Translations under genes and position numbers: made by a program
Shown: one piece after another, positions 37,164 through 64,000 of the stretch
Numbering within the stretch: the stretch's first letter is position 1
How the letters are laid out: every line of letters begins with the position of its first letter
The notes under the pieces: model-generated
Told to the model about the DNA's origin: nothing
The model's input: only the letters and a program-made list of their open reading frames with translations
Database searches by the model: none
NCBI RefSeq assembly: GCF_021155765.1
Contig: NC_060112.1
Span: 13,144,001 to 13,208,000 of the forward strand
Source: Diprion similis
Lineage: Eukaryota > Arthropoda > Insecta > Hymenoptera > Diprionidae
Direction: 5' to 3'
DNA: 64,000 nt

Positions 37164-40100
37164 CTATAGATTATTCACGGATATAATTTGGTTTATCCAT
37201 CCAATGAAAGCGGAAACTTTAACGTAAACTCCAGGTACGTCTACTCTGCCACAACCAAAACCCCATGAGACTAATCCTGCCAGTTCATAGAATCCATCAT
37301 CCTGGCAGACCAACGGTCCTCCACCATCACCCTGTGAATGTTGAAGAAATAACGATAATACCACGTGGATATATGATTACATCTTAATTAATACTGGATG
37401 CTATGTTACTCACTTGACAAGCATCATTGCCCTGTTCCCCTCCAGCACAGAAACTGCTTGCTGGTAATATAAATATTTTTTCTGTTACGGCATTTACCTT
37501 CCTAATGCATTCAGGATCGCTTACTATTGGTATTTCTGCTTCACGTACTCTTAACGGAATAGGCCCAGCTGCAATGCGGTATGTATCAGTTTTATGACAT
37601 ACATAGATGATTTTTTTTTAATAATCTAGTTCACACTATGTCTTTTTGCAGAATAGCATTAGTATGATACTTGACTGTGACTTTAAATTCAAGAACAACA
37701 ATTATTTGTAACATTGTTGACATGTAACATGAAACATTACATAAGCTTTTCTGCAACAACTTACCTTCTCCCATGTAACCATAGCCAGTAACTGTGCATC
37801 TTTTTCCAGCTGTGTGGCTGACACCTCTAGCTGGTAAACAAACTAAACATACACCTTCCCTTAATTCTGCCTGCCCATGTAACTTCAAGAGGGCTATATC
37901 ATTGTCGAGGGTCTGGCTATTATGATTGTGATGAATGTATGTTGTTGCAACACGCAAGGTTTGAGCGCCAGGACTACCATACTTGCGTGTAAGATCATGA
38001 TCACCAACTCTGACGTATATCGCATCACCGGAGCGGACAATGCTGAAATTTTTGGAGGCTTTAAAATATACTTCATCTATTCATATTATTAAAAAAAAAA
38101 AAAAACAGAAAAATGCCATGTGAAAAACTAAACAGCTCCCTCCTATGCAGGATATAATGGCATTGGTTTGTAGTGTGACACTAACTTGGTTACACAATGA
38201 GCTGCAGTCAGAACCCACTGCGTCCCGATCAGGGCGCCGCCACAAAGGTATTGGTTCAAAGAATTGATAAGTGCCACCTGCCAGCACCATTCATTAGCAT
38301 CTGCGTCTTCTCCACCTACTACTCGGGCTTCTCTAATATCGTTTCTTGCTTGTAGTGGACCTCGTGAAGTTCCTTTGACACCGCAGACATATTTGCTGTA
38401 AACTGGTGCACGCGTCGTGGTTGCTAGAGTTGTTGTCTCATCTATAATATGTATCATCAGGTTGTATGCATTTCAATTGATATTTATATTGGAGATATTA
38501 CCGATATTATAGGTTGTTTTTATTCCTCATATGCTGGTGAAATTTTGAAGTAACTATTCTAAATTTATTTACTTACAACTTGGAGTTGAAATCATTGTTG
38601 TATATGGTCTTGGAGTTGAGTTTGGCATAAAAACGGTGTCGTTTCTATTTGTGGCTGATTGTTGATTGGAACTGTCACCCTGAAGTTCTCTGATAATTGA
38701 TTTTGGGGCGCAGCATTGATGCCCCAATTTCTTGCACTTGAAGAGATCCGTCATTTCAGCATTCCCTATGCACAAACACTTCTTGACATATTTTTCTACT
38801 TATAAACGGTTTCATCTGAAAATTAATTGTTTCAATATGCAATACTTATACATTAAAACTGTGCTGCAAAAAGACGCATAGCAATGTATTTTAGCCACTT
38901 CATTTAGTTGTCGACATGAATTGGAAACTTTTTGATATTCAGAAATTTTTGGTTTTCATGAATTAAAATTTTAACAAGTGATAGGATATAATCAAAAGGC
39001 AAAGAAAAAACACAGAGTACACTTACTGAAGCACGTAAAAGACAGATAGGAAACTATACATGAACCAGGGCATTCTGGACGAGGATCGGGTGGTGCAGGA
39101 GCTACAGTTGTTGTTGGCCTTGGCGTTGTGGGTCTGGGTCTGGGACGCTGTAAAGACTAGACGGTTAGTTGCAACCAGTGATTAAAACTCACAATCATAG
39201 AATATCATTGTCGAACACAAAATTTTTCTCTATTCCATAACGTTAATGTTACAATTCACCCTATCACAGTTAACTATAAAGAAAGCAACTACATTACTCG
39301 TCGAACAAACACCATTCAAATAAGCAGTATGCTAACCGGAGATGGACTTCTCGTATCGTCACAACATATCGTGCTTGCTGAACAAGTTGACGTCTTAGGT
39401 ATAAGAACGTATGGCCGTTCGCAAAAGGCTGCCATGATGTTCAGTATACAAAAGCCTGGACAGCGAGGTAGTTTTGATGGTGGTGGTGGTGAAGGTCTGG
39501 TCGATGGACGTAAAGTTGTTGTGGTACTCGGTTCCTAAAAATTGAGAGAAAAACGCAATAGCATTTAGTTATTTGAGTCTCTCTATATGGTAGATATTTT
39601 ACTGGAAATTGTTAGCAATTTATAATGATTTTCAAAAATATTATCACTGAAGTTTATGTTGGGAATTCTGTTCGGAAAATTTTTCTTTTAATACATTCTG
39701 TTATTGAAATATCATTCAAAAGTTCATGTGAATAAATTTAATAGGTATTGAGAGTTCTCGTGGAAATTGTAATACGTAAATAGAGAAAACTGTTCACGTA
39801 GAACTACCGTCTTTTGTGGGGTGTCAGTTATACAGCAACTGCCATCATTCGGACACTCTGCTTCGCTGTCAATATTGTCACAGAAGAGAGCAAATAGGCC
39901 ACTGACACATTCACCTGTGCATTGAATTGCAGGTTTTGATTTGGGAGTCGTAATGCTCGTAGTTGGAGCAGGAGTTGAACTGGACATAGTTGAGGAAACA
40001 GTTGTAAGTTGAGTATTCTTTGCTGGTGTAGCCATAGTTTTGCGTGTTGTATTTCGATTAATGACAGTCAATTCTGGTGGTGGAGAATCACCATATATAT

Positions 40101-43100
40101 CACGAGAAACACAACATCGTAATCCTTCCTCGCACAGGTCATCGACAGCTAATACTGCTTCACAATAATCAGCCATTCGATCCGGCACACATACTCCGGC
40201 ACATTTTTTACCTGAAAGAAGATCATATTTTAAAGAACACTGGTTCACATAATTCTATCAGTTTATATTTCAGACATTTTATTTATGCAACAAACAATCC
40301 CTTGGCTTACCGTCTGACAACTTATCCTGTGCTTCTTTTTGCTTGGCCTAAAAAAATTCATTTAAAATATCATTCAATTGAAGGAAGTCTGTATAGTTAT
40401 CTATGTCAACTGCATTGTCCGTAAGATCGAAAGTATTAAGTCTTTACATCACATTTACCGTAGTTGTTTTTAGTGTGGTAGTATACAACGGTGTCGTTGA
40501 CGTAGTAGTCGTTGATAGGGTTGTCGGTGGAATTATAGTTGTAATAGGCTTAGCTTCCGTATTTTTCGTTGTGTTTTCACTACCCTTAACATTTGGTGAA
40601 TCGGCAGAAATGGTATTGTTAGCTGCTTCCACGCAGCATCGCATACTCGCAGATGGACACTGAATATCTTCCAGTACCTCGTAGCATATCAAAGTTGCAA
40701 ACGCGTGAACACATACTCCAGGACAGTCTGCGCTGTTTGCAGTACTCGTTATCGAATCCAATAGTCCTATAATTAAGCATTAGGATTAAGTAGAATCCTA
40801 TGACTTGCAACAGCTTTGCAAAATTTGTATATTTATCATTTTTCAACTACCGTAAATTCTTACTGTCGAAATTTCCATGAACAATTCAACTTTTTTAGTT
40901 TATATGAACATTAATAATACACTGGAAAACACAAAAATATCTCCGAGTAAAAAATGAATCACATATATTTATTCGAGAACCGGAAATGAATATCTCGGTT
41001 AGCATTTGAGACCGCAGACCACTTAACGAAAATTCATGGTATGTGGACCTTTACTTAACTCAACTTTGTTTTAAATTGTGGTTCCGAGCCATTTTATTCA
41101 TAGTGAAGTCAAGTCTTATTATGGACCTCCCTAATGAAAATGATCATGTGTTAAATCATAAAAGGTTTCGAAAGAATTCAGTCTGTCATGGATCACATGA
41201 CTTATCTTGTAAATTCGATAAGATATATAAGAAATCACATAATAAATTACAAAAGCACGTACGAATCATCAGATATACTAGATCAAAAATCATATAGTTA
41301 TTTATATAGTGACTTATTTCGATAAAATATATTCGCCATCACGTGATTATAGTTATATGATTTTTAATTTAGTATATTAAATAGATTTGATGATTCGTAC
41401 ATGCTTTTGTAATTTATTATGCGATTTCTGATACAGTTTATATTAAAATTTTACAGTCAACTTTATAGTGACTGAATTCGATAAAATATTTAAGAAATAA
41501 TATAATTATGGTTATATAGACACTCCTGTAATTATGGTGTTCGGTGAAACAGGGGAAACGATTTCTAATTATTTTCCGTTCAATTTTCTACTACTTTAGA
41601 TTTCTCAAAACTAAAATTGTCCATGTTGCAGAATCAACAGGATTAGAGATAAAATTAGTTATTTGAGTTCCATTCATCTTCATACTGCTACTAATAATTA
41701 AAGTATTCGATTGGATAAGACGCTTTCATATATCTGGGTTATTCGCAAAAATACATTCGTATTCCAAATCTTGTGCATCTTTATTGTAACGAGGATGTGC
41801 TACACATTTAGAATAAGTAATAGAGTCTATTTGCTCGCAGCGTTCCACACTGCACTGTAAGAATTTCTCGCAAGATTCACACTTCGTAGAAAGTTATTTG
41901 GACATGTTCAACTTAGTTTCAATTTAAAAGTAGGTGATCTGACGTCCCATCGCTAATAAGACGATGAATCACTTTTCACACACCGTGAATTCATCCTGAA
42001 ACGACATTGCATGTAATAAATATTCATCCGTAGAAAATGAAACATTGTCAGTATTTCCTTTTTCGTCTTTTTTAAAGAGGAAATACTGTCTTTCAAAACA
42101 ATTTGATCTATTATACACATTAGGGCATTAATTCTGATGCGTTGTATGGTAGAAGAATCTGATGTAAGGTCGCAAGTGATAGATAAATGTTTTATTGTAG
42201 TGATAGGAAAATTTGGCATTTCAAAATGTAAATTAATATATGTTATTTTTATTACACCACCGGTTGAATATCAGTGATAATATTAATGCATCTCACAACG
42301 AATCGAGTATGCTATAGCAGCCGTTTAGTACCGGCGGCTGGTAATTAGCTGGAAGAATGAATGTGCACTTGAGGATCCGTGCGTGAAAGGCTGAAAAAAA
42401 ACATCGCAAAAACTCACAACTAGGTACACAAAGTTGCAAGCCCAGACAGGAACTCGTGTTCCCGTTAAAAAGAATACCAAATCAGTGAGTGCCTCCCCCC
42501 TTCCCTGATCCCACCTCCCACAGCAGGCTCGCGTCCTAGATGGCGTGGCCCTCCCCCCCGGTCTTCCCGGAGGTGCGGAACGGAACGCCGCCACCGACTC
42601 GGATGACCCATCGAAATCCGAAGTCTTTGAGGCTTACAATCAGATAAGAAGAACCAACGCCTGGAGAAGAGGCGGCAGGTCATTGTCACGTATATATTCT
42701 AGTGAAGTATATTTTATTATTATACACAGGATGTACACCGTATAAGACATGTTTAAAAGTTTACAACCAAGCGTTAAATACGTAGGTATAAGAACAAAAG
42801 AAGAAGTTTGAATGACTGTTTTCAATCGAATATCGTAACGGTAATGACTTCCAACGATCAAACGGATTCATCCGACGGTTTATACTCTTTCGACATCCCG
42901 TCTGTGAAAATATTCGCATAGAATTATGCGTTGTCCCGTACGTATGCCCATACTCAACGCTGTAATCCCGACGTCGGCACATCGGCAGGCATAACGGCCC
43001 AAACAAATATAACGGGAGTTAATAAGCAGCGCACGAAGCAGAATCGCGTCTCCCCCTCTTTCTTTCGCCTCATCTTTTCTTTTTTTTCTTTCTTTCTTGC

Positions 43101-47339: not shown

Positions 47340-48000
47340 TTTGCGAATCGATTTCGAGACCAAAAATGTATCGCCCATAATAAAGTGAGGCTAACCCGGG
47401 TGGTTTTTGGGCGAAATTTCCACGAATTTGAAAATAATGCAGCCGATTCTTTCGTGCACTATTGCATCGTAATTCTGCAAGATAAGTCCGTTGGACGCAT
47501 GGTTCAAATACGCTGCGAGCGACACATAGAAGGTTACAGGGAAAAAAAAAAGACTTCCTACCGTCATTTCTCTGCTGCTGGTCCTACGCTGTTTTCGACG
47601 TGTTTTCTGAGTTCCTTGGGGTCGAATTACTCTAGAGTGGCCATACAATTCGATTCGGAGACAAAAAATTGTCGGCTCTGAAAATGACCAAAAAGGTAAG
47701 ACTAACCCCTTTGAATTTTTGGCGAAAACTTTGACGATTCTGAAAAAAGCTGCAATCAATTCGATGGGGCACTATTCCGACGTAATTTTGCGAGAGAAAT
47801 CGATTAAGCGCAGTCCCAATACGCTGCGAGCGATAGCTGAAAAGTTACGGCCGAAAAACTCATGATTTTCATCGTCATTTCTCCAATGCTGGTCCTACGC
47901 TGTTTTTGACGTAATTTTTGAGTTCCTTGGGGTCGAATTACTCTAGCGATGGCTATACAAATCGATTCAGAGACAAAAAATTTTCGGCTCCGAAAATGAC
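47340..48000. repeat. Degenerate edge copies of the satellite
   Basis: The first copy (about 47340-47690) is clearly related but heavily substituted: its CTACGCTGTTTTCGACGT and CCTTGGGGTCGAATTACTCT blocks are intact while the CGATAGCTGAAAAGTTACGG and ATTCGATGGGGCACTATTCC blocks are scrambled. The second copy is already near consensus. The junction with unique DNA is near 47340. Confidence 0.85.
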
Positions 48001-48699
48001 CATAAAAGTAAGGCTAACCCCTTTGAATTTTTGGCGAAAATTTTGACGATTCTGAAAAAAGCTGCAATCAATTCAATGGGGCACTATTCCGACGTAATTT
48101 TGCGAGAGAAATCGATTAAGCGCAGTCCCAATACGCTGCGAGCGATAGCTGAAAAGTTACGGCCGAAAAACTCATGAATTTCATCGTCATTTATCTGCTG
48201 CTGGTCCTACGCTGTTTTCGACGTAATTTCTGAGTTCCTTGGGGTCGAATTACTCTAGAAATGGCGATACAAATCGATTCGGAGACAAAAAATTTTCGGC
48301 TCCGAAAATGACCAAAAAAGTAAGGCTAACCCCTTTGAATTTTTGGCGAAAATGTTGACGATTCGAAAAAAAGCTGCAATCAATTCGACGGGGCACTATT
48401 CCGACGTAATTTTGCGAGAGGAATCGATTAGGCGCAGTCCCAATACGCTGCGAGCGATAGCTGAAAAGTTACGGCCGAAAAACTCACGATTTTCATCGTC
48501 ATTTCTCTGCTGCTGGTCCTACGCTGTTTTTGACGTAATTTTTGAGTTCCTTGGGGTCGAATTACTCTGGAGATGGCCATACAAATCGATTCGTAGACAA
48601 AAAATTTTCGACTCCGAAAATGACCAAAAAAGTAAGGCTAACCCCTTTGAATTTTTGGTGAAAATTTTGACGTATCTGAAAAAAGCTGCAATCAATTCG

Positions 48700-50883
48700 A
48701 TGGGGCACTATTCCAACGTAATTTTGCGAGAGGAATCGATTGAGCGCAGTCCCAATACGCTGCGAGCGATAGCTGAAAAGTGACGGCCGAAAAACTCATG
48801 ATTTTCATCGTCATTTCTCTGCTGCTGGTCCTACGCTGTTTTCGACGTGATTTCCGAGTTCCTTGGGGTCGAATTACTCTAGAGATGGCCATACAAATCG
48901 ATTCGGAGACAAAAAATTTTCGACTCCGAAAATGACCAAAAAAGTAGGGCTAACCCCTTTGAATTTTTGGCGAAAAGTTTGACGATTCTGAAAAAAGCTG
49001 CAATCAATTCGATGGGGCACTATTCCGACGTAATTTTGCGAGAGAAATCGATTGAGCGCAGTCCCAATACGCTGCGAGCGATAGCTGAAAAGTTACGGCC
49101 GAAAAACTCATGATTTTTATCGTCATTTCTCCAATGCTGGTCCTACGCTGTTTTTGACGTAATTTTTGAGTTCCTTGGGGTCGAATTACTCTAGAGATGG
49201 CCATACAAATCGATTCGGAGACACAAAATTTTCGACTCCGAAAATGACCAAAAAAGTAAGGCTAACCCCTTTGAATTTTTGGCGAAAATTTTGACGATTC
49301 TGAAAAAACCTGCAATCAATTCGATGGGGCACTATTCCGACGTAATTTTGCGAGAGGAATCGATTAAGCGCAGTCCCAATACGCTGCGAGCGATAGCTGA
49401 AAAGTTACGACCGAAAAACTCATGAATTTCATCATCATTTCTCTGCTGCTGGTCCTACGCTGTTTTCGACGTAATTTCCGAGTTCCTTGGGGTCGGATTA
49501 CTCTAGAGATGGCCATACAAATCGATTCGGAGACAAAAAATTTTCGACTCCGAAAATGACCAAAAAAGTAAGGCTAACCCCTTTGAATTTTTGGCGAAAA
49601 GTTTGACGATTCTGAAAAAAGCTGCAATCAATTCGATGGGGCACTATTCCGACGTAATTTTGCGAGAGAAATCGATTGAGCGCAGTCCCAATACGCTGCG
49701 AGCGATAGCTGAAAAGTTACGGCCGAAAAACTCATGATTTTTATCGTCATTTCTCCAATGCTGGTCCTACGCTGTTTTTGACGTAATTTTTGAGTTCCTT
49801 GGGGTCGAATTACTCTAGAGATGGCCATACAAATCGATTCGGAGACAAAAAATTTTCGACTCCGAAAATGACCAAAAAAGTAAGGCTAACCCCTTTGAAT
49901 TTTTGGCGAAAATTTTGACGATTCTGAAAAAACCTGCAATCAATTCGATTGGGCACTATTCCGACGTAATTTTGCGAAAGGAATCGATTAAGCGCAGTCC
50001 CAATACGCTGCGAGCGATAGCTGAAAAGTTACGGCCGAAAAACTCATGAATTTCATCGTCATTTCTCTGCTGCTGGTCCTACGCTGTTTTTGACGTAATT
50101 TCCGAGTTCCTTGGGGTCAAATTACTCTAGAGATGGCCATACAAATCGATTCGGAGACAAAAAATTTTCGACTCCGAAAATGACCAAAAAAGTAAGGCTA
50201 ACCCCTTTGAATTTTTGGCGAAAATTTTGACGATTCTGAAAAAAGCTGCAATCAATTCGATGGGGCACTATTCCGACGTAATTTTGCGAGAGAAATCGAT
50301 TGAGCGCAGTCCCAATACGCTGCGAGCGATCGCTGAAAAGTTACGGCCGAAAAACTCATGATTTTTATCGTCATTTCTCCAATGCTGGTCCTACGCTGTT
50401 TTTGACGTAATTTTTGAGTTCCTTGGGGTCGAATTACTCTAGAGATGGCCATACAAATCGATTCGGAGACAAAAAATTTTCGACTCCGAAAATGACCAAA
50501 AAAGTAAGGCTAACCCCTTTGAATTTTTGGCGAAAATTTTGACGATTCTGAAAAAACCTGCAATCAATTCGATGGGGCACTATTCCGACGTAATTTTGCG
50601 AAAGGAATCGATTAAGCGCAGTCCCTATACGCTGCGAGCGATAGCTGAAAAGTTACGGCCGAAAAACTCATGATTTTCATCGTCATTTCTCTGCTGCTGG
50701 TCCTACGCTGTTTTTGACGTAATTTTTGAGTTCCTTGGGGTCGAATTACTCTAGAGATGGCCATACAAATCGATTCGGAGACACAAAATTTTCGACTCCG
50801 AAAATGACCAAAAAAGTAAGGCTAACCCCTTTGAATTTTTGGCGAAAATTTTGACGATTCTGAAAAAACCTGCAATCAATTCG
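48700..50883. repeat. Higher-order repeat unit 1, seven monomers (2184 bases)
   Basis: Monomer families run in the order A B A B A B B from 49004. Rare private variants mark the unit: TTCCAACGTA near 48712, AAAGTGACGG near 48777, GTAGGGC at 48953 and GTCCCTATACG near 50622. Each has its exact partner 2184 bases downstream. Confidence 0.88.
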
Positions 50884-53067
50884 ATGGGGCACTATTCCAA
50901 CGTAATTTTGCGAGAGGAATCGATTAAGCGCAGTCCCAATACGCTGCGAGCGATAGCTGAAAAGTGACGGCCGAAAAACTCATGATTTTCATCGTCATTT
51001 CTCTGCTGCTGGTCCTACGCTGTTTTCGACGTGATTTCCGAGTTCCTTGGGGTCGAATTACTCTAGAGATGGCCATACAAATCGATTCGGAGACAAAAAA
51101 TTTTCGACTCCGAAAATGACCAAAAAAGTAGGGCTAACCCCTTTGAATTTTTGGCGAAAAGTTTGACGATTCTGAAAAAAGCTGCAATCAATTCGATGGG
51201 GCACTATTCCGACGTAATTTTGCGAGAGAAATCGATTGAGCGCAGTCCCAATACGCTGCGAGCGATAGCTGAAAAGTTACGGCCGAAAAACTCATGATTT
51301 TTATCGTCATTTCTCCAATGCTGGTCCTACGCTGTTTTTGACGTAATTTTTGAGTTCCTTGGGGTCGAATTACTCTAGAGATGGCCATACAAATCGATTC
51401 GGAGACACAAAATTTTCGACTCCGAAAATGACCAAAAAAGTAAGGCTAACCCCTTTGAATTTTTGGCGAAAATTTTGACGATTCTGAAAAAACCTGCAAT
51501 CAATTCGATGGGGCACTATTCCGACGTAATTTTGCTAGAGGAATCGATTAAGCGCAGTCCCAATACGCTGCGAGCGATAGCTGAAAAGTTACGACCGAAA
51601 AACTCATGAATTTCATCATCATTTCTCTGCTGCTGGTCCTACGCTGTTTTCGACGTAATTTCCGAGTTCCTTGGGGTCGGATTACTCTAGAGATGGCCAT
51701 ACAAATCGATTCGGAGACAAAAAATTTTCGACTCCGAAAATGACCAAAAAAGTAAGGCTAACCCCTTTGAATTTTTGGCGAAAAGTTTGACGATTCTGAA
51801 AAAAGCTGCAATCAATTCGATGGGGCACTATTCCGACGTAATTTTGCGAGAGAAATCGATTGAGCGCAGTCCCAATACGCTGCGAGCGATAGCTGAAAAG
51901 TTACGGCCGAAAAACTCATGATTTTTATCGTCATTTCTCCAATGCTGGTCCTACGCTGTTTTTGACGTAATTTTTGAGTTCCTTGGGGTCGAATTACTCT
52001 AGAGATGGCCATACAAATCGATTCGGAGACAAAAAATTTTCGACTCCGAAAATGACCAAAAAAGTAAGGCTAACCCCTTTGAATTTTTGGCGAAAATTTT
52101 GACGATTCTGAAAAAACCTGCAATCAATTCGATTGGGCACTATTCCGACGTAATTTTGCGAAAGGAATCGATTAAGCGCAGTCCCAATACGCTGCGAGCG
52201 ATAGCTGAAAAGTTACGGCCGAAAAACTCATGAATTTCATCGTCATTTCTCTGCTGCTGGTCCTACGCTGTTTTTGACGTAATTTCCGAGTTCCTTGGGG
52301 TCAAATTACTCTAGAGATGGCCATACAAATCGATTCGGAGACAAAAAATTTTCGACTCCGAAAATGACCAAAAAAGTAAGGCTAACCCCTTTGAATTTTT
52401 GGCGAAAATTTTGACGATTCTGAAAAAAGCTGCAATCAATTCGATGGGGCACTATTCCGACGTAATTTTGCGAGAGAAATCGATTGAGCGCAGTCCCAAT
52501 ACGCTGCGAGCGATCGCTGAAAAGTTACGGCCGAAAAACTCATGATTTTTATCGTCATTTCTCCAATGCTGGTCCTACGCTGTTTTTGACGTAATTTTTG
52601 AGTTCCTTGGGGTCGAATTACTCTAGAGATGGCCATACAAATCGATTCGGAGACAAAAAATTTTCGACTCCGAAAATGACCAAAAAAGTAAGGCTAACCC
52701 CTTTGAATTTTTGGCGAAAATTTTGACGATTCTGAAAAAACCTGCAATCAATTCGATGGGGCACTATTCCGACGTAATTTTGCGAAAGGAATCGATTAAG
52801 CGCAGTCCCTATACGCTGCGAGCGATAGCTGAAAAGTTACGGCCGAAAAACTCATGATTTTCATCGTCATTTCTCTGCTGCTGGTCCTACGCTGTTTTTG
52901 ACGTAATTTTTGAGTTCCTTGGGGTCGAATTACTCTAGAGATGGCCATACAAATCGATTCGGAGACACAAAATTTTCGACTCCGAAAATGACCAAAAAAG
53001 TAAGGCTAACCCCTTTGAATTTTTGGCGAAAATTTTGACGATTCTGAAAAAACCTGCAATCAATTCG
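50884..53067. repeat. Higher-order repeat unit 2, tandem duplicate of unit 1
   Basis: Repeats unit 1 base for base apart from scattered differences, carrying the same rare variants at +2184 (50896, 50961, 51137, 52806). The 2184 register is lost at about 53060, where the sequence resembles the monomers 1560 bases earlier instead. Confidence 0.88.
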
Positions 53068-55669
53068 ATGGGGCACTATTCCGACGTAATTTTGGGAGAG
53101 GAATCGATTAAGCGCAGTCCCAATACGCTGCGAGCGATAGCTGAAAAGTTACGACCGAAAAACTCATGAATTTCATCGTCATTTCTCTGCTGCTGGTCCT
53201 ACGCTGTTTTCGACGTAATTTCCGAGTTCCTTGGGGTCGGATTACTCTAGAGATGGCCATACAAATCGATTCGGAGACAAAAAATTTTCGACTCCGAAAA
53301 TGACCAAAAAAGTAAGGCTAACCCCTTTGAATTTTTGGCGAAAAGTTTGACGATTCTGAAAAAAGCTGCAATCAATTCGATGGGGCACTATTCCGACGTA
53401 ATTTTGCGAGAGAAATCGATTGAGCGCAGTCCCAATACGCTGCGAGCGATAGCTGAAAAGTTACGGCCGAAAAACTCATGATTTTTATCGTCATTTCTCT
53501 GTTGCTGGTCCTACGCTGTTTTCGACGTAATTTCCGAGTTCCTTGGGGTCGAAATACTCTAGAGATGGCCATACAAATCGATTCGGAGACAAAAAATTTT
53601 CGACTCCGAAAATGACCAAAAAAGTAAGGCTAACCCCTTTGAATTTTAGGCGAAAAGTTTGACGATTCTGAAAAAAGCTGCAATCAATTCGATGGGGCAC
53701 TATTCCGACGTAATTTTGCGAGAGAAATCGATTGAGCGCAGTCCCAATACGCTGCGAGCGATAGCTGAAAAGTTACGGCCGAAAAACTCATGATTTTTAT
53801 CGTCATTTCTCCAATGCTGGTCCTACGCTGTTTTTGACGTAATTTTTGAGTTCCTTGCGGTCGAATTACTCTAGAGATGGCCATACAAATCGATTCGGAG
53901 ACAAAAAATTTTCGACTCCGAAAATGACCAAAAAAGTAAGGCTAACCCCTTTGAATTTTTGGCGAAAATTTTGACGATTCTGAAAAAACCTGCAATCAAT
54001 TCGATGGGGCACTATTCCGACGTAATTTTGCGAGAGGAATCGATTAAGCGCAGTCCCAATACGCTGCGAGCCATAGCTGAAAAGTTACGGCCGAAAAACT
54101 CATGATTTTCATCGTCATTTCTCTGCTGCTGGTCCTACGCTGTTTTTGACGTAATTTTTGAGTTCCTTGGGGTTGAATTACTCTAGAGATGGCCATACAA
54201 ATCGATTTGGAGAGAAAAAATTTTCGGCTCCGAAAATCACTAAAAAAGTAAGGCTAACCCCTTTGAATTTTTGGCAAAAATTTTGACGAATCTGAAAAAA
54301 GCTGCAATCAATTCGATGGGGCACTATTCCGACGTAATTTTGCGAGAGGAATCGATTAAGCGCAGTCCCAATACGCTGCGAGCGATAGCCGAAAAGTTAC
54401 GGCCGAAAAACTCGTGATTTTCATCGTCATTTCTCTGCTGCTGGTCCTACGCTGTTTTCGACGTAATTTCCGAGTTCCTTGGGGTCGAATTACTCTGGAG
54501 ATGGCCATACAAATCGATTCGGAGACAAAAAATTTTCGACTCCGAAAATGACCAAAAAAGTAAGGCTAACCCCTTTGAATTTTTGGCGAAAAGTTTGACG
54601 ATTCTGAAAAAAGCTGCAATCAATTCGATGGGGCACTATTCCGACGTAATTTTGCGAGAGAAATCGATTGAGCGCAGTCCCAATACGCTGCGAGCGATAG
54701 CTGAAAAGTTACGGCCGAAAAACTCATGATTTTTATCGTCATTTCTCCAATGCTGGTCCTACGCTGTTTTTAATGTAATTTTTGAGTTCCTTGGGGTCGA
54801 ATTACTCTAGAGATGGCCATACAAATCGATTCGGAGACACAAAATTTTCGACTCCGAAAATGACCAAAAAAGTAAGGCTAACCCCTTTGAATTTTTGGCG
54901 AAAATTTTGACGATTCCGAAAAAACCTGCAATTAATTCGATGGGGCACTATTCCGACGTAATTTTGCGAGAGGAATCGATTAAGCGCAGTCCCAATACGC
55001 TGCGAGCGATAGCTGAAAAGTTACGGCCGAAAAACTCATGATTTTCATCGTCATTTCTCTGCTGCTGGTCCTACGCTGTTTTTGACGTAATTTTTGAGTT
55101 CCTTGGGGTCGAATTACTCTAGAGATGGCCATACAAATCGATTCGGAGACAAAAAATTTTCGACTCCGAAAATGACCAAAAAAGTAAGGCTAACCCCTTT
55201 GAATTTTTGGCGAAAATTTTGTCGATTCTGAAAAAACCTGCAATCAATTCGATGGGGCACTATTCCGACGTAATTTTGCGAGAGGAATCGATTAAGCGCA
55301 GTCTTAATACGATGCGAGCGATAGCTGAAAAGTTACGACCGAAAAACTCATGAATTTCATCGTCATTTCTCTGCTGCTGGTCCTACGCTGTTTTCGACGT
55401 AATTTCCGAGTTCCTTGGGGTCGAATTACTCTAGAGATGGCCATACAAATCGATTCGGAGACAAAAAATTTTCGACTTCGAAAATGACCAAAAAAGTAAG
55501 GCTAACCCCTTTGAATTTTTGGCGAAAAGTTTGACGATTCTGAAAAAAGCTGCAATCAATTCGATGGGGCACTATTCCGACGTAATTTTGCGAGAGAAAT
55601 CGATTGAGCGCAGTCCCAATACGCTGCGAGCGATAGCTGAAAAGTTACGGCCGAAAAACTCATGAATTT

Positions 55670-57540
55670 CATCGTCATTTCTCTGCTGCTGGTCCTACGC
55701 TGTTTTCGACGTAATTTTTGAGTTCCTTGGGGTTGAATTACTCTAGAGATGGCCATACAAATCGATTTGGAGAGAAAAAATTTTCGGCTCCGAAAATGAC
55801 TAAAAAAGTAAGGCTAACCCCTTTGAATTTTTGGCGAAAATTTCGACGAATCTGAAAAAAGCTGCAATCAATCCGATGGGGCACTATTCCGACGTAATTT
55901 TGCGAGAGGAATCGATTACGCGCAGTCCCAATACGCTGCGAGCGATAGCTGAAAAGTTACGGCCGAAAAACTCATGATTTTCATCGTCATTTCTCTGTTG
56001 CTGGTCCTACGCTGTTTTCGACGTAATTTCCGAGTTCCTTGGGGTCGAAATACTCTAGAGATGGCCATACAAATCGATTCGGAGACAAAAAATTTTCGAC
56101 TCCGAAAATGACCAAAAAAGTAAGGCTAACCCCTTTGAATTTTAGGCGAAAAGTTTGACGATTCTGAAAAAAGCTGCAATCAATTCGATGGGGCACTATT
56201 CCGACGTAATTTTGCGAGAGAAATCGATTGAGCGCAGTCCCAATACGCTGCGAGCGATAGCTGAAAAGTTACGGCCGAAAAACTCATGATTTTTATCGTC
56301 ATTTCTCCAATGCTGGTCCTACGCTGTTTTTAATGTAATTTTTGAGTTCCTTGGGGTCGAATTACTCTAGAGAGGGCCATACAAATCGATTCGGAGACAC
56401 AAAATTTTCGACTCCGAAAATGACCAAAAAAGTAAGGCTAACCCCTTTGAATTTTTGGCGAAAATTTTGACGATTCCGAAAAAACCTGCAATTGATTCGA
56501 TGGGGCACTATTCCGACGTAATTTTGCGAGAGGAATCGATTAAGCGCAGTCCCAATACGCTGCGAGCGATAGCTGAAAAGTTACGGCCGAAAAACTCACG
56601 ATTTTCATCGTCATTTCTCTGCTGCTGGTCCTACGCTGTTTTCGACGTAATTTTTGAGTTCCTTGGGGTTGAATTACTCTAGAGATGGCCATACAAATCG
56701 ATTTGGAGAGAAAAAATTTTCGGCTCCGAAAATGACTAAAAAAGTAAGGCTAACCCCTTTGAATTTTTGGCGAAAATTTCGACGAATCTGAAAAAAGCTG
56801 CAATCAATCCGATGGGGCACTATTCCGACGTAATTTTGCGAGAGGAATCGATTACGCGCAGTCCCAATACGCTGCGAGCGATAGCTGAAAAGTTACGGCC
56901 GAAAAACTCATGATTTTCATCGTCATTTCTCTGTTGCTGGTCCTACGCTGTTTTCGACGTAATATCCGAGTTCCTTGGGGTCGAAATACTCTAGAGATGG
57001 CCAAACAAATCGATTCGGAGACAAAAAATTTTCGACTTCGAAAATGACCAAAAAAGTAAGGCTAACCCCTTTGAATTTTAGGCGAAAAGTTTGACGATTC
57101 TGAAAAAAGCTGCAATCAATTCGATGGGGCACTATTCCGACGTAATTTTGCGAGAGAAATCGATTGAGCGCAGTCCCAATACGCTGCGAGCGATAGCTGA
57201 AAAGTTACGGCCGAAAAACTCATGATTTTTATCGTCATTTCTCCAATGCTGGTCCTACGCTGTTTTTAATGTAATTTTTGAGTTCCTTGGGGTCGAATTA
57301 CTCTAGAGAGGGCCATACAAATCGATTCGGAGACACAAAATTTTCGACTCCGAAAATGACCAAAAAAGTAAGGCTAACCCCTTTGAATTTTTGGCGAAAA
57401 TTTTGACGATTCCGAAAAAACCTGCAATTGATTCGATGGGGCACTATTCCGACGTAATTTTGCGAGAGGAATCGATTAAGCGCAGTCCCAATACGCTGCG
57501 AGCGATAGCTGAAAAGTTACGGCCGAAAAACTCATGATTT
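55670..57540. repeat. Three-monomer (936-base) tandem duplication within the array
   Basis: The variants CTCTGTTGCTGG, GAATTTTAGGCG, GTTTTTAATGTAA, AGAGAGGGCCAT and ATTGATTCGATGG occur in the same order in 55670-56605 and 56606-57540, offset by exactly 936. The boundaries are approximate. Confidence 0.8.
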
Positions 57541-57914
57541 TCATCGTCATTTCTCTGCTGCTGGTCCTACGCTGTTTTTGACGTAATTTTTGAGTTCCTT
57601 GGGGTCGAATTACTCTAGAGATGGCCATACAAATCGATTCGGAGACAAAAAATTTTCGACTCCGAAAATGACCAAAAAAGTAAGGCTAACCCCTTTGAAT
57701 TTTTGGCGAAAATTTTGACGATTCCGAAAAAACCTGCAATTATTTCGATGGGGCACTATTCCGACGTAATTTTGCGAGAGGAATCGATTAAGCGCAGTCC
57801 CAATACGCTGCGAGCGATAGCTGAAAAGTTACGGCCGAAAAACTCATGATTTTCATCGTCATTTCTCTGCTGCTGGTCCTACGCTGTTTTTGACGTAATT
57901 TTTGAGTTCCTTGG

Positions 57915-60540
57915 GGTCGAATTACTCTAGAGATGGCCATACAAATCGATTCGGAGACAAAAAATTTTCGACTCCGAAAATGACCAAAAAAGTAAGGCTA
58001 ACCCCTTTGAATTTTTGGCGAAAAGTTTGACGATTCTGAAAAAAGCTGCAATCAATTCGATGGGGCACTATTCCGACGTAATTTTGCGAGAGAAATCGAT
58101 TGAGCGCAGTCCCAATACGCTGCGAGCGATAGCTGAAAAGTTACGGCCGAAAAACTCATGATTTTTATCGTCATTTCTCCAATGCTGGTCCTACGCTGTT
58201 TTTAATGTAATTTTTGAGTTCCTTGGGGTCGAATTACTCTAGAGATGGCCATACAAATCGATTCGGAGACACAAAATTTTCGACTCCGAAAATGACCAAA
58301 AAAGTAAGGCTAACCCCTTTGAATTTTTGGCGAAAATTTTGACGATTCCGAAAAAACCTGCAATTAATTCGATGGGGCACTATTCCGACGTAATTTTGCG
58401 AGAGGAATCGATTAAGCGCAGTCCCAATACGCTGCGAGCGATAGCTGAAAAGTTACGGCCGAAAAACTCATGATTTTCATCGTCATTTCTCTGCCGCTGG
58501 TCCTACGCTGTTTTTGACGTAATTTTTGAGTTCCTTGGGGTCGAATTACTCTAGAGATGGCCATACAAATCGATTCGGAGACAAAAAATTTTCGACTCCG
58601 AAAATGACCAAAAAAGTAAGGCTAACCCCTTTGAATTTTTGGCGAAAATTTTGTCGATTCTGAAAAAACCTGCAATCAATTCGATGGGGCACTATTCCGA
58701 CGTAATTTTGCGAGAGGAATCGATTAAGCGCAGTCTTAATACGATGCGAGCGATAGCTGAAAAGTTACGACCGAAAAACTTATGAATTTCATCGTCATTT
58801 CTCTGCTGCTGGTCCTACGCTGTTTTCGACGTAATTTCCGAGTTCCTTGGGGTCGAATTACTCTAGAGATGGCCATACAAATCGATTCGGAGACAAAAAA
58901 TTTTCGACTTCGAAAATGACCAAAAAAGTAAGGCTAACCCCTTTGAATTTTTGGCGAAAAGTTTGACGATTCTGAAAAAAGCTGCAATCAATTCGATGGG
59001 GCACTATTCCGACGTAATTTTGCGAGAGAAATCGATTGAGCGCAGTCCCAATACGCTGCGAGCGATAGCTGAGAAGTTACGGCCGAAAAACTCATGATTT
59101 TTATCGTCATTTCTCCAATGCTGGTCCTACGCTGTTTTTGACGTAATTTTTGAGTTCCTTGGGGTCGAATTACTCTAGAGATGGCCATACAAATCGATTC
59201 GGAGACAAAAAATTTTCGACTCCGAAAATGACCAAAAAAGTAAGGCTAACCCCTTTGAATTTTTGGCGAAAATTTTGACGATTCTGAAAAAAGCTGCAAT
59301 CAATTCGATAGGGCACTATTCCGACGTAATTTTGCGAGAGGAATCGATTAAGCGCAGTCCCAATACGCTGCGAGCGATAGCTGAAAAGTTACGGCCGAAA
59401 AACTCATGAATTTCATCGTCATTTCTCTGCTGCTGGTCCTACGCTGTTTTCGACGTAATTTTTGAGTTCCTTGGGGTTGAATTACTCTAGAGATGGCCAT
59501 ACAAATCGATTTGGAGAGAAAAAATTTTCGGCTCCGAAAATGACTAAAAAAGTAAGGCTAACCCCTTTGAATTTTTGGCGAAAATTTCGACGAATCTGAA
59601 AAAAGCTGCAATCAATCCGATGGGGCACTATTCCGACGTAATTTTGCGAGAGGAATCGATTACGCGCAGTCCCAATACGCTGCGAGCGATAGCTGAAAAG
59701 TTACGGCCGAAAAACTCATGATTTTCATCGTCATTTCTCTGTTGCTGGTCCTACGCTGTTTTCGACGTAATTTCCGAGTTCCTTGGGGTCGAAATACTCT
59801 AGAGATGGCCATACAAATCGATTCGGAGACAAAAAATTTTCGACTCCGAAAATGACCAAAAAAGTAAGGCTAACCCCTTTGAATTTTAGGCGAAAAGTTT
59901 GACGATTCTGAAAAAAGCTGCAATCAATTCGATGGGGCACTATTCCGACGTAATTTTGCGAGAGAAATCGATTGAGCGCAGTCCCAATACGCTGCGAGCG
60001 ATAGCTGAAAAGTTACGGCCGAAAAACTCATGATTTTTATCGTCATTTCTCCAATGCTGGTCCTACGCTGTTTTTGACGTAATTTTTGAGTTCCTTGGGG
60101 TCGAATTACTTTAGAGATGGCCATACAAATCGATTCGGAGACAAAAAATTTTCGACTCCGAAAATGACCAAAAAAGTAAGGCTAACCCCTTTGAATTTTT
60201 GGCGAAAATTTTGACGATTCTGAAAAAACCTGCAATCAATTCGATGGGGCACTATTCCGACGTAATTTTGCGAGAGGAATCGATTAAGCGCAGTCCCAAT
60301 ACGCTGCGAGCCATAGCTGAAAAGTTACGGCCGAAAAACTCATGATTTTCATCGTCATTTCTCTGCTGCTGGTCCTACGCTGTTTTTGACGTAATTTTTG
60401 AGTTCCTTGGGGTTGAATTACTCTAGAGATGGCCATACAAATCGATTTGGAGAGAAAAAATTTTCGGCTCCGAAAATGACTAAAAAAGTAAGGCTAACCC
60501 CTTTGAATTTTTGGCGAAAATTTTGAGGAATCTGAAAAAA
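57915..60540. repeat. Block copies of earlier parts of the array
   Basis: Bases 57.9-59.1 kb repeat 54.5-55.6 kb at an offset of 3432 (11 monomers), shown by the private variants TTTTGTCGATTCTG (55218 and 58650) and GTCTTAATACGATGCG (55302 and 58734). Bases about 59.4-59.9 kb then follow 55.67 kb at 3744 (12 monomers), and 59.73-60.5 kb follow 53.49-54.3 kb at 6240 (20 monomers), shown by GAGCCATAGCTG at 54068 and 60308. Confidence 0.75.
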
Positions 60541-63500
60541 GCTGCAATCAATTCGATGGGGCACTATTCCGACGTAATTTTGCGAGAGGAATCGATTAAG
60601 CGCAGTCCCAATACGCTGCGAGCGATAGCTGAAAAGTTACGGCCGAAAAACTCATGATTTTCATCGTCATTTCTCTGCTGCTGGTCCTACGCTGTTTTCG
60701 ACGTAATTTCCGAGTTCCTTGGGGTCGAATTACTCTAGAGATGGCCATACAAATCGATTCGGAGACAAAAAATTTTCGACTCCGAAAATGACCAAAAAAG
60801 TAAGGCTAACCCCTTTGAATTTTTGGCGAAAAGTTTGACGATTCTGAAAAAAGCTGCAATCAATTCGATGGGGCACTATTCCGACGTAATTTTGCGAGAG
60901 AAATCGATTGAGCGCAGTCCCAATACGCTGCGAGCGATAGCTGAAAAGTTACGGCCGAAAAACTCATGATTTTTATCGTCATTTCTCCAATGCTGGTCCT
61001 ACGCTGTTTTTGACGTAATTTTTGAGTTCCTTGGGGTCGAATTACTCTAGAGATGGCCATACAAATCGATTCGAAGACAAAAAATTTTCGACTCCGAAAA
61101 TGACCAAAAAAGTAAGGCTAACCCCTTTGAATTTTTGGCGAAAATTTTGACGATTCTGAAAAAACCTGCAATCAATTCGATGGGGCACTATTCCGACGTA
61201 ATTTTGCGAGAGGAATCGATTAAGCGCAGTCCCAATACGCTGCGAGCGATAGCTGAAAAGTTACGGCCGAAAAACTCATGATTTTCATCGTCATTTCTCT
61301 GCTGCTGGTCCTACGCTGTTTTTGACGTGATTTTTGAGTTCCTTGGGGTTGAATTACTCTAGAGATGGCCATACAAATCGATTTGGAGAGAAAAAATTTT
61401 CGGCTCCGAAAATGACTAAAAAAGTAAGGCTAACCCCTTTGAATTTTTGGCGAAAATTTTGACGAATCTGAAAAAAGCTGCAATCAATTCGATGGGGCAC
61501 TATTCCGACGTAATTTTGCGAGAGGAATCGATTAAGCGCAGTCCCAATACGCTGCGAGCGATAGCTGAAAAGTTACGGCCGAAAAACTCATGATTTTCAT
61601 CGTCATTTCTCTGCTGCTGGTCCTACGCTGTTTTTGACGTGATTTTTGAGTTCCTTGGGGTTGAATTACTCTAGAGGTGGCCATACAAATCGATTTGGAG
61701 AGAAAAAATTTTCGGCTCCGAAAATGACTAAAAAAGTAAGGCTAACCCCTTTGAATTTTTGGCGAAAATTTTGACGAATCTGAAAAAAGCTGCAATCAAT
61801 TCGATGGGGCACTATTCCGACGTAATTTTGCGAGAGGAATCGATTAAGCGCAGTCCCAATACGCTGCGAGCGATAGCTGAAAAGTTACGGCCGAAAAACT
61901 CATGATTTTCATCGTTATTTCTCTGCTGCTGGTCCTACGCTGTTTTCGACGTAATTTCCGAGTTCCTTGGGGTCGAATTACTCTAGAGATGGCCATACAA
62001 ATCGATTCGGAGACAAAAACTTTTCGACTCCGAAAATGACCAAAAAAGTAAGGCTAACCCCTTTGAATTTTTGGCGAAAATTTTGACGATTCTGAAAAAA
62101 CCTGCAATCAATTCGATGGGGCACTATTCCGACGTAATTTTGCGAGAGGAATCGATTAAGCGCAGTCCCAATACGCTGCGAGCGATAGCTGAAAAGTTAC
62201 GGCCGAAAAACTCACGATTTTCATCGTCATTTCTCTGCTGCTGGTCCTACGCTGTTTTTGACGTAATTTTTGAGTTCCTTGGGGTTGAATTACTCTAGAG
62301 GTGGCCATACAAATCGATTAGGAGAGAAAAAATTTTCGGCTCCGAAAATGACTAAAAAAGTAAGGCTAACCCCTTTGAATTTTTGGCGAAAATTTTGACG
62401 AATCTGAAAAAAGCTGCAATCAATTCGATGGGGCACTATTCCGACGTAATTTTGCGAGAGGAATCGATTAGGCGCAGTCCCAATACGCTGCGAGCGATAG
62501 CTGAAAAGTTACGGCCGAAAAACTCATGATTTTCATCGTCATTTCTCTGCTGCTGGTCCTACGCTGTTTTCGACGTAATTTCTGAGTTCCTTGGGGTCGT
62601 ATTACTCTAGAGATGGCGATACAAATCGATTCAGAGACAAAAAATTTTCGGCTTCGAAAATGACCAAAAAGTAAGGCTAACCCCTTTGAATATTCGGCGA
62701 AAATTTTGACGATTCTGAAAAAAGCTGCAATCAATTCGATGGGGCACTATTCCGACGTAATTTTGCGAGAGGAATCGATTAAGCGCAGTCCCAATACGCT
62801 GCGAGCGATAGCTGAAAAGTTACGGCCGAAAAACTCATGAATTTCATCGCCATTTCTCTGCTGCTGGTCCTACGCTGTTTTCGACGTAATTTCGGAGTTC
62901 CTTGGGGTCGAATTACTCTAGAGATGGCTATACAAATCGATTCGGAGACAAAAAATTTTCGGCTTCGAAAATGACCAAAAAAGTAAGGCTAACCCCTTTG
63001 AATTTTTGGCGAAAATTTTGACGATTCTGAAAAAACCTGCAATCAATTCGATGGGTCACTATTCCGACGTAATTTTGCGAGAGGAATCGATTAAGCGCAG
63101 TCCCAATACGCTGCGAGCGATAGCTGAAAAGTTACGGCCGAAAAACTCATGATTTTCATCGTCGTTTCTCTGCTGCTGGTCCTACGCTGTTTTCGACGTA
63201 ATTTCTGAGTTCCTTGGGGTCGAATTACTCTAGAGATGGCCATACAAATTGATTCGGAGACAAAAAATTTTCGACTCCGAAAATGACCAAAAAAGTAAGG
63301 CTAACCCCTTTGAATTTTTGGCGAAAATTCTGACGATTCTGAAAAAAGCTGCAATCAATTCGATGGGTCACTATTCCGACGTAATTTTGCGAGAGAAATC
63401 GATTAAGCGCAGTCTCATTACGCTGCGAGCGATAGCTGAAAAGTTACGGCCAAAAAACTCATGATTTTCATCGTCATTTCTCTGCTGCTGGTCCTACGCT

Positions 63501-64000
63501 GTTTTCGACGTAATTTCTGAGTTCCTTGGGGTCGTATTACTCTAGAGATGGCGATACAAATCGATTCAGAGACAAAAAATTTTCCGCTTCGAAAATGACC
63601 AAAAAGTAAGGCTAACCCCTTTGAATATTCGGCGAAAATTTTGACGATTCCGAAAAAACCTGCAATTAATTCGATGGGGCACTATTCCGACGTAATTTTG
63701 CGAGAGGAATCGATTAAGCGCAGTCCCAATACGCTGCGAGCGATAGCTGAAAAGTTACGGCCGAAAAACTCATGATTTTCATCGTCATTTCTCTGCTGCT
63801 GGTCCTACGCTGTTTTTGACGTAATTTTTGAGTTCCTTGTGGTCGAATTACTCTAGAGATGGCCATACAAATCGATTCGGAGACAAAAAATTTTCGACTC
63901 CGAAAATGACCAAAAAAGTAAGGCTAACCCCTTTGAATTTTTGGCGAAAATTTTGACGATTCTGAAAAAAGCTGCAATCAATTCGATAGGGCACTATTCC

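What the first reader, a model, noticed from the sequence alone, without database searches (positions are those of the whole stretch)
47340..64000. A 312-base satellite with multi-layer higher-order structure at a gene boundary
The array is not a uniform tandem repeat. At least three monomer families are arranged in a seven-monomer unit, a three-monomer unit and longer 11-, 12- and 20-monomer block copies, all directly readable from rare shared variants. Higher-order satellites are well known in primate centromeres but have been described in fewer insects. The family is not one I recognise. Recent amplification at several scales implies repeated unequal exchange or replication-based copying.
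Basis: partly seen in the sequence, partly recalled or inferred. Interest (0 to 1): 0.8.

Follow-up and report, generated by a model that had tools for sequence, protein, structure and literature searches.

The report
Scattered satellite arrays in sawfly genome
A 312-base tandem repeat beside genes in a pine sawfly is one of many scattered arrays of the same repeat, each of which seems to have reshuffled itself privately by uneven exchange; it is an ordinary kind of repeat, but unusually well suited to testing how such repeats evolve.

Summary
Window 47346-64000 is most of a 19.85-kb array of a 312-bp satellite that ends 3.2 kb past the window. Block copies are real: a seven-monomer unit twice, a C-B-A trimer five times, and matches at spacings 9, 11, 12, 15 and 20, where the copied stretches are only 2-5 monomers. 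The genome is very probably Diprion similis, a pine sawfly. The family has at least 49 sites on 10 contigs, about 18,000 copies, roughly 2% of the genome. In eight arrays examined, each shows block duplication beyond shuffles, mostly at its own spacing, and 442 of 442 monomers are closest to their own array. Simulated unequal crossing-over with little or no gene conversion reproduces the window array. So this is a dispersed satellite, probably euchromatic, with array-private concerted evolution and incipient higher-order units, not a primate-type centromeric array. Less expected: length is held near 312 (about 43 substitutions per indel, against 8-14 in most decayed copies), and six of eight arrays keep, at an edge, pieces of a non-monomer spacer of roughly 490 bp between decayed monomers, in constant order and orientation. 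The arrays probably regrew from an older composite repeat.

The parts
47346..47546 (+). Decayed ('fossil') monomer at the left edge of the array, about 70-77% identical to array consensuses
47562..47873 (+). First full monomer (monomer 0), divergent edge copy
47562..64000 (+). 312-bp satellite array inside the window: 52 monomers plus a 217-bp tail. The array continues to G000:C8:13211198 (equivalent to window position 67198); beyond it lies the decayed spacer-monomer-spacer stretch L009:3246-4210 (equivalent to 67246-68210)
48810..50993 (+). Seven-monomer unit, first copy (monomers 4-10)
   Evidence: monomers 4-9 differ from 11-16 by 1 base in 1,872
50994..53177 (+). Seven-monomer unit, second copy (monomers 11-17), directly adjacent to the first. 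The seventh pair (10 vs 17) falls outside the cut-off
54114..55049 (+). Trimer C-B-A, copy 1 (monomers 21-23)
   Evidence: read from the variant table
55674..56609 (+). Trimer C-B-A, copy 2 (monomers 26-28); 4 differences in 936 bp from copy 3
56610..57545 (+). Trimer C-B-A, copy 3 (monomers 29-31)
59418..60353 (+). Trimer C-B-A, copy 4 (monomers 38-40). Monomers 38-39 are identical to 26-27 at spacing 12
60354..61289 (+). Trimer C-B-A, copy 5 (monomers 41-43)
61914..63472 (+). Five-monomer stretch (46-50) copied at spacing 9 to monomers 55-59, beyond the window end
   Evidence: 5 differences in 1,560 bp
37631..40779 (-). Nearest recognisable coding exons to the left among the ORFs scanned: trypsin-like and CLIP (masquerade-type) domains
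15347..17422 (+). DNAJC21 gene, used to identify the species: best match Diprion similis on a 28,020,057-bp contig

Best explanation
This is one array of a dispersed, probably euchromatic satellite DNA family (312-bp monomer) of the pine sawfly Diprion similis. Many short arrays sit along the chromosome arms. Each evolves alone by unequal crossing-over (between sister chromatids or homologues) of blocks of a few monomers, with about one new mutation per exchange across the array. Block duplications then look like higher-order units at spacings of 2 to 30 monomers, mostly different from array to array, and edge monomers that drop out of exchange decay. The decayed edges often keep a spacer of about 490 bp between monomers, so the arrays probably grew in place from monomers of an older composite repeat. 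Shown: structure, dispersal, private homogenisation, decayed edges, shared spacer. Inferred: unequal crossing-over as the process, growth in place, and that no function is needed for the layered pattern.
For: Dispersal: 15,948 exact copies of a 17-mer found in 406 of 457 decomposed monomers, and 49 distinct places on 10 contigs (my tally from the capped lists). Privacy: in 8 arrays, 442 of 442 monomers (15 edge monomers over 10% off consensus dropped) have their nearest relative in their own array. Over 36 arrays, mean divergence is 4.4% within and 14.4% between. Block copying: the longest diagonal run exceeds the maximum of 500 shuffles in 8 of 8 arrays, at spacings 7, 12, 8, 13, 10, 2, 10 and 30. 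The two copies of the 7-mer unit are directly adjacent. Model: 6 of 48 parameter sets contain all seven observed statistics within the range of 16 runs each; 4 of these have no gene conversion. Linkage inside monomers decays with distance, r2 0.18 to 0.06. Edges: decayed monomers on both sides of the window array; spacer pieces at 6 of 14 array edges (6 of 8 arrays) and beside decayed monomers at 3 of 3 other sites fetched, all in the monomer's orientation, with no hit in a shuffled control. Genic setting: Pfam domains on both sides. Species: with the contig length.
Against: An earlier, coarser simulation (whole-monomer blocks, at least 2 mutations per event) over-predicted mean divergence in all 15 parameter sets, 38-772 against 13.8, so the fit depends on about one mutation per exchange. 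The four-gamete fraction (0.28) lies at the low end of the fitting runs. Two fitting sets include some gene conversion, so it is not excluded. Uniform monomer length and non-uniform conservation are not in the model. Eight of 14 edges show no spacer, so growth in place is not shown for every array. Chromatin state is inferred from neighbouring genes only.
Confidence: 0.82

Rival explanations
1. Constrained satellite: selection, not only exchange, keeps the 312-bp length and a few sequence boxes, for example because a protein or phased nucleosomes read each monomer and silence or insulate the surroundings.
For: Array consensuses show about 43 substitutions per indel (54 in the more divergent pairs) against means of 8-14 in 7 of 8 decayed edge copies; a substitution-only control gives few spurious indels. 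Variability is clustered along the monomer more than in shuffles, 10 of 5,000, and 44 of 5,000 with a wider mask round the search motif. CGCTGCGAGC is intact in both decayed copies beside the window array. Precedent by passage: satellite siRNAs modify chromatin near euchromatic copies in Tribolium (PMC5844308).
Against: Exchange itself may purge length variants. Length variants do spread inside single arrays: 504 motif pairs at spacing 313, 38 at 314, 29 at 310, many of them clustered. The arrays were found through a 17-mer, so conservation at and near it is biased. Variable positions are partly CpG (0.132 vs 0.079). Decayed copies differ mostly at positions that are variable between arrays, which also fits subfamily history or mutational bias. 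One decayed copy (R_10.86) has a mean ratio of 47.8, though 14 in its best alignment.
Confidence: 0.2
2. Gene conversion or replication-based copying (break-induced replication, rolling-circle reinsertion) rather than crossing-over makes the block copies.
For: Two of the 6 fitting parameter sets include 0.5 conversion events per exchange. Four-gamete site pairs exist: 205 of 741.
Against: Among the parameter sets printed (part of 60), those with 3 or more conversion events per exchange gave four-gamete fractions of about 0.59-0.78 against 0.28 observed. The 7-mer copies are directly adjacent, as crossing-over predicts.
Confidence: 0.2
3. The arrays were seeded by recent insertion of circles or of monomers carried by an active mobile element, rather than by growth in place from an old composite repeat.
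For: Dozens of sites on 10 contigs, some close across contigs, such as C7 2.69 and C1 4.98 Mb at 1.6%. Circle-mediated spread is proposed for Tribolium satellites (PMC5844308 passage). The spacer itself could be part of a mobile element; its ends and coding content were not determined.
Against: Decayed monomers lie at the edges, and old spacer pieces (64-84% identity in the comparisons) at 6 of 14 edges, which points to old residents. Spacer queries find only 22 and 13 places in the genome, so the spacer is not an active family. Nearest arrays lie on the same contig in 20 of 36 cases (shuffle mean 4.8), and divergence rises with distance, which suggests local spread.
Confidence: 0.15
4. A centromeric or pericentromeric higher-order satellite, as in primates.
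For: Layered units; a family making up about 2% of the genome.
Against: The array is only 19.85 kb and has genes on both sides. Six arrays lie on one 28-Mb contig between 2.7 and 25.6 Mb. Units differ between most arrays.
Confidence: 0.04
5. Assembly artefact in the block copies.
For: Reads could not be examined.
Against: The longest exact repeat is 1,546 bp and most of the block copies listed carry private differences. Block copying recurs in 8 of 8 arrays.
Confidence: 0.03

Closest known systems
Euchromatic tandem arrays of Tribolium castaneum (Pavlek et al. 2015; higher-order repeats, Vlahovic et al. 2017; both seen only as cited in passages of PMC5844308)
   Same: Numerous tandem arrays in euchromatin; higher-order repeats reported in families of heterochromatin or euchromatin
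Diprion pini satellite DNA, four transcribed subfamilies (Rouleux-Bonnin et al. 1996; only the citation and a one-line passage in PMC2220036 seen)
   Same: Same genus; several subfamilies of satellite DNA
   Different: It may be the same family in a sister species
Drosophila 1.688 and Responder satellites (named in a passage of PMC5844308)
   Same: Satellite copies dispersed in euchromatin as well as heterochromatin
   Different: No sequence comparison made; a large heterochromatic block of the 312-bp family has been neither found nor excluded
Primate alpha satellite higher-order repeats (recalled)
   Same: Multi-monomer units attributed to unequal exchange
   Different: Here the units are few, short, private to each array, made of monomers about 4% apart, and not centromeric as far as tested

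Membership tests
Satellite DNA | Head-to-tail tandem copies of a non-coding monomer in large number | tested here: met
   Period 312, 95% matches; 15,948 17-mer hits; no Pfam match for a 174-aa array ORF, no protein homologue of a 103-aa array ORF, no Rfam match in the window
Satellite DNA | Concerted evolution (copies more alike within than between arrays) | tested here: met
   4.4% within vs 14.4% between over 36 arrays; 442 of 442 monomers nearest to their own array in 8 arrays
Dispersed euchromatic satellite (Tribolium type) | Short arrays scattered along arms, close to genes | tested here: met
   49 places on 10 contigs; genes on both sides at the one site examined for genes
Dispersed euchromatic satellite (Tribolium type) | Euchromatic chromatin state, transcription or small-RNA effects | not testable with these tools
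   No chromatin or RNA data
Higher-order repeat array (alpha-satellite type, definition recalled) | One multi-monomer unit reiterated many times with near identity | tested here: not met
   The 7-mer unit occurs twice, the trimer five times and not all contiguous
Higher-order repeat array (alpha-satellite type, definition recalled) | Monomers inside a unit strongly diverged from one another | tested here: not met
   Mean 13.8 differences per 312 bp, about 4%
Centromeric satellite | CENP-A association, megabase arrays | tested here: inconclusive
   This array is 19.85 kb with genes on both sides; CENP-A not testable; large arrays elsewhere in the genome not excluded
Transposon-derived tandem repeat | Carrier sequence joined to the monomer | tested here: inconclusive
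   A shared non-monomer spacer lies between decayed monomers at 6 of 14 array edges and 3 of 3 other sites fetched; no profile match to the monomer in the spacer
Transposon-derived tandem repeat | Element ends, target-site duplications or transposase remnants | not tested
   Spacer ends and coding content were not examined; only an array ORF was scanned
Diprion pini satellite subfamilies (1996) | Sequence relationship to the published monomers | not testable with these tools
   Paper not found in the library; searches show citations and one passage only

The most novel reading that the evidence does not exclude
The 312-bp family is a constrained, genome-wide set of perhaps hundreds of small regulatory or heterochromatin-seeding islands that re-grew from the monomer part of an older composite repeat. 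Each monomer carries a conserved box (around AGCGCAGTCCCAATACGCTGCGAG) at a tightly held 312-bp spacing, read by a sequence-specific protein or small RNA, while the array interior turns over freely by unequal exchange and the spacer is left to decay.
Probability: 0.17. Interest if true: 0.65.

Novelty: new member of a known kind. Interest (0 to 1): 0.38.

Why it matters
At least 49 arrays of one monomer family, with no exchange between arrays seen in the eight compared, are natural replicates of the same experiment. They would allow the old unequal-exchange theory of tandem repeats (block size, exchange rate, edge decay) to be fitted and tested in one genome. They also pose two open questions: why monomer length is held so tightly while sequence diverges by 14%, and why the monomer, but not its old spacer, grew into arrays again and again. 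For sawflies it suggests a major, gene-adjacent repeat that annotation and mapping should mask.

Tried and rejected
Internal dimer of 2 x 156: best half-to-half score 13; 5 of 200 shuffles reach it, so not a clear dimer. A 29-bp near-palindrome (positions 93-121) scores 19 against a shuffle mean of 12.9 and maximum of 24 and is not conserved above average (0.113 vs 0.092); rejected as a dyad signal. Protein coding: a 103-aa array ORF had 4 candidates and no match, and a 174-aa array ORF had no Pfam family. RNA gene: no Rfam match in the window. Beetle origin was my first guess; it was dropped for a sawfly, and a genome-size search of papers did not help. Searches of papers bearing on the satellite. 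No title or abstract start listed describes a 312-bp Diprion satellite; open-licence papers only, and supplements were not searched.

A reading that I had to give up: after I noted that the flanks share no carrier and took the shared pieces for decayed satellite. One search showed that most of these pieces do not match the monomer above shuffles, and searches showed that they belong to a common spacer. The odds for recent seeding by circles or an active element were lowered for this reason.

Simulations: the version failed on mean divergence; allow breakpoints inside monomers and lower mutation input. Searches stopped with script errors and were rerun. In one search the last line (monomer type letters) used a wrong column for type C and is not used.

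Relatives: the genome tool holds no relatives of this genome, so Neodiprion or D. pini could not be searched.
Full report
WHAT IS THERE. The window is G000:C8:13144001-13208000. A 312-bp tandem repeat starts with a decayed copy at 47346-47546 and full monomers at 47562, and runs off the window end. The complete array is C8:13191346-13211198, 19.85 kb, one orientation. Inside the window there are 52 monomers and a 217-bp tail; the joined sequence gives 63 monomers, spacings 312 (57) and 311 (5). The array end is also followed by a decayed copy, at the position equivalent to window 67697-67924 (65-67% identity).

LAYERS. Monomer types share rare variants. Monomers 4-9 and 11-16 differ by one base in 1,872; monomers 46-50 and 55-59 by 5 in 1,560; 22-25 and 33-36 by 9 in 1,248; 37-39 and 52-54 by 8 in 936; 26-28 and 29-31 by 4 in 936; 26-27 and 38-39 by none in 624; 19-20 and 39-40 by 2 in 624. 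A C-B-A trimer is read five times. The matches at spacings 11 and 12 look like one duplication shifted by one monomer (inference). The longest exact repeat is 1,546 bp.

MORE THAN CHANCE. With monomer order shuffled 500 times, the longest diagonal run of near-identical monomers never reached the observed value in any of 8 arrays (6 vs maximum 4 here; 12/6, 8/4, 7/6, 10/4, 6/3, 5/3 and 12/5 in the others). Best-run spacings are 7, 12, 8, 13, 10, 2, 10 and 30. Six of the 8 arrays were held whole; C4 is cut on the left and C2 on the right.

WHOSE GENOME. The DNAJC21 reading frame at 15347-17422 matches a Diprion similis protein at 98% identity; that protein's contig is 28,020,057 bp long, exactly the length of C8. 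Telomeric TTAGG repeats begin contig C1. D. similis is a diprionid sawfly.

SETTING. To the left lie NUDIX, TMEM39-type, DNAJC21, DUF938, angiotensin-converting-enzyme, thioredoxin, trypsin and CLIP domains; the nearest among the ORFs scanned is the CLIP domain at 40444-40779. To the right, annexin, kinesin, nucleotidyl-transferase and SUMO-like domains, and weak RING matches below the curated cut-offs, lie within about 36 kb. The array is therefore an intergenic island in a gene-bearing arm. Neighbouring genes are the only evidence for a euchromatic state.

DISPERSAL. The 17-mer GCGCAGTCCCAATACGC occurs 8,221 times forward and 7,727 times reverse in 269.0 Mb, and its reversed control 0 times. 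It is present in 406 of 457 decomposed monomers, so there are about 18,000 monomers, 5.6 Mb, about 2.1% of the genome (extrapolation; more divergent subfamilies may be missed). Listings are capped; I count 49 places on 10 contigs (C1 10, C2 5, C3 13, C4 4, C6 4, C7 1, C8 6, C10 2, C11 2, C12 2). The total number of arrays is unknown; a few hundred is a guess from about 60 monomers per array.

PRIVATE EVOLUTION. Over 36 arrays and 110 monomers, divergence is 4.4% within and 14.4% between arrays (between-array range 1.6-23.4%). In the 8 large arrays all 442 monomers kept (15 edge monomers over 10% off consensus dropped) have their nearest relative in their own array. Nearest arrays are on the same contig in 20 of 36 cases (label-shuffle mean 4.8, maximum 15 in 5,000 shuffles), and divergence rises with distance along a contig (Spearman 0.45; pairs are not independent). 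The sample of 36 is not random: it came from 17-mer, spacing-variant and similarity hits.

MECHANISM. Simulated unequal crossing-over with breakpoints anywhere in the monomer was compared with seven statistics of the window array (48 parameter sets, 16 runs each). Six sets contain all seven values: mean block 2, 4 or 5 monomers with 1 mutation per exchange, or 4 with 1.5, without gene conversion; and two sets (mean block 1 or 2) with 0.5 mutations and 0.5 conversion events per exchange. Frequent gene conversion breaks up linkage more than is seen, in the sets printed. A coarser earlier version failed on mean divergence. With a mutation rate of about 3.5e-9 per base per generation (recalled for bees), one exchange per array per roughly 10,000-20,000 generations follows; this is an order of magnitude only. 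Nothing functional is needed for the layered pattern. Crossing-over as the physical process is inferred, not shown.

AN OLDER COMPOSITE UNIT. Array flanks share sequence that is not the monomer. To the right of the window array, in L009, the order is array, spacer (3246-3695), decayed monomer (3695-3924), spacer again (3934-4210); the two spacer copies match at 72% with a period of about 734 bp. Pieces of the spacer occur at 6 of 14 array edges, belonging to 6 of the 8 arrays (13.19, 11.28, 25.57 and 10.86 Mb on C8, C10 13.05, C2 9.60); arrays 11.58 and C4 show none in the flank held, and the C4 left and C2 right edges were not held. In every case the pieces lie in the monomer's orientation, and a block-shuffled control gives no hit at all. 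At three further sites fetched because of the spacer (C1 6.085, C11 6.345, C10 9.717 Mb) decayed monomers lie beside it, again in the same orientation. The stretch between flanking monomer matches is 497, 488 and 496 bp at three sites, 583 and 682 at two others. A profile of the 36 array consensuses finds no monomer in the spacer stretches; its one good hit (2e-6) in the 10.86 stretch lies largely ahead of the spacer piece, where one search also shows weak monomer matches. In the whole genome a P+Q query has 22 matches and an S+P query 13, two of each within the window array's own flank; others lie next to known arrays (C8 11.30, 2.73 and 10.88, C2 20.65, C12 15.66 Mb). So the monomer once formed part of a longer unit of roughly 740-800 bp, at places in tandem, and the 312-bp arrays probably grew from its monomer part in place. 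Whether that unit was a satellite or a mobile element is open.

WHAT THE SIMPLE MODEL LEAVES OPEN. Length: array consensuses are 310-314 bp (27 of 36 exactly 312). Pairs of them show 43 substitutions per indel, 54 in the more divergent pairs. The two decayed copies beside the window array give means of 7.9 and 10.5; six decayed stretches at the edges of other arrays give means of 13.8, 12.5, 47.8, 11.2, 13.5 and 7.8, so one behaves like the arrays on average (14 in its best alignment). A substitution-only control gives 0.4-0.9 spurious indels at similar divergence. Against a strict constraint, 504 motif pairs are spaced 313 bp, 38 are 314 and 29 are 310, many clustered in single arrays. Sequence: conservation is clustered along the monomer (10 of 5,000 shuffles; 44 of 5,000 with positions 236-274 masked), with nearly invariant runs such as ACCCCTTTG and TTCCGACGT. 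The best box contains the search 17-mer and is therefore biased; its extension TGCGAG is not part of the search word. CGCTGCGAGC is intact in both decayed copies beside the window array. CpG observed/expected is 1.48 in the monomer and 0.87 in the first 47 kb of the window, and CpG positions are more variable. Purging of length variants by exchange itself may explain the length as well as selection does.

KNOWN OR NEW. Passages of PMC5844308 describe numerous euchromatic tandem arrays in Tribolium castaneum, higher-order repeats in heterochromatic and euchromatic families, proposed spread through circles, and small-RNA effects on nearby genes. PMC2220036 (passages) says satellite transcripts occur on both strands in Diprion pini, citing Rouleux-Bonnin et al. 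1996, which I could not read; the 312-bp family may be related to those satellites. PMC13192020 and PMC11354594 were seen as passages, other papers as search listings only. No title or abstract start listed describes this satellite in D. similis. I file it as a new member of a known kind: dispersed satellite DNA with incipient, array-private higher-order structure.

Noticed in passing
G000:C8:11280141-11299692 and 11578310-11591809 (L016-L020): Two arrays 280 kb apart, both on the minus strand, have consensuses 99.4% identical, yet no monomer is nearer to the other array: a recent common origin, or exchange followed by private turnover.
   Followed up: partly
window 47562-64000, monomer consensus: The monomer is CpG-rich (observed/expected 1.48 against 0.87 in the first 47 kb), which suggests little germline methylation of this satellite.
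   Followed up: no
window 42000-47300: GC rises to 0.38-0.41 left of the array, with a GAA tract at 46199-46249; the relaxed satellite search found no decayed copies there apart from 47346-47546.
   Followed up: partly
L062 (C1:6085000-6086150): The most complete decayed monomer-spacer-monomer unit seen, at a place where no array is known to me; a good starting point for defining the ends of the composite repeat.
   Followed up: partly
L031 1-529: An inverted self-match of 529 bp (71.6%) lies left of the C10 array, perhaps a decayed hairpin element.
   Followed up: no
C2 array, L033 and L025-L028: One gap of 2,201 bp between successive monomers in the decomposition, near the decayed, spacer-bearing left edge.
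   Followed up: partly
G000 C6:2.95-3.00 Mb, C8:2.69-2.73 Mb, C1:3.55-3.58 Mb: Some arrays hold 313- or 314-bp spacings in many copies, so length variants do spread inside single arrays.
   Followed up: no
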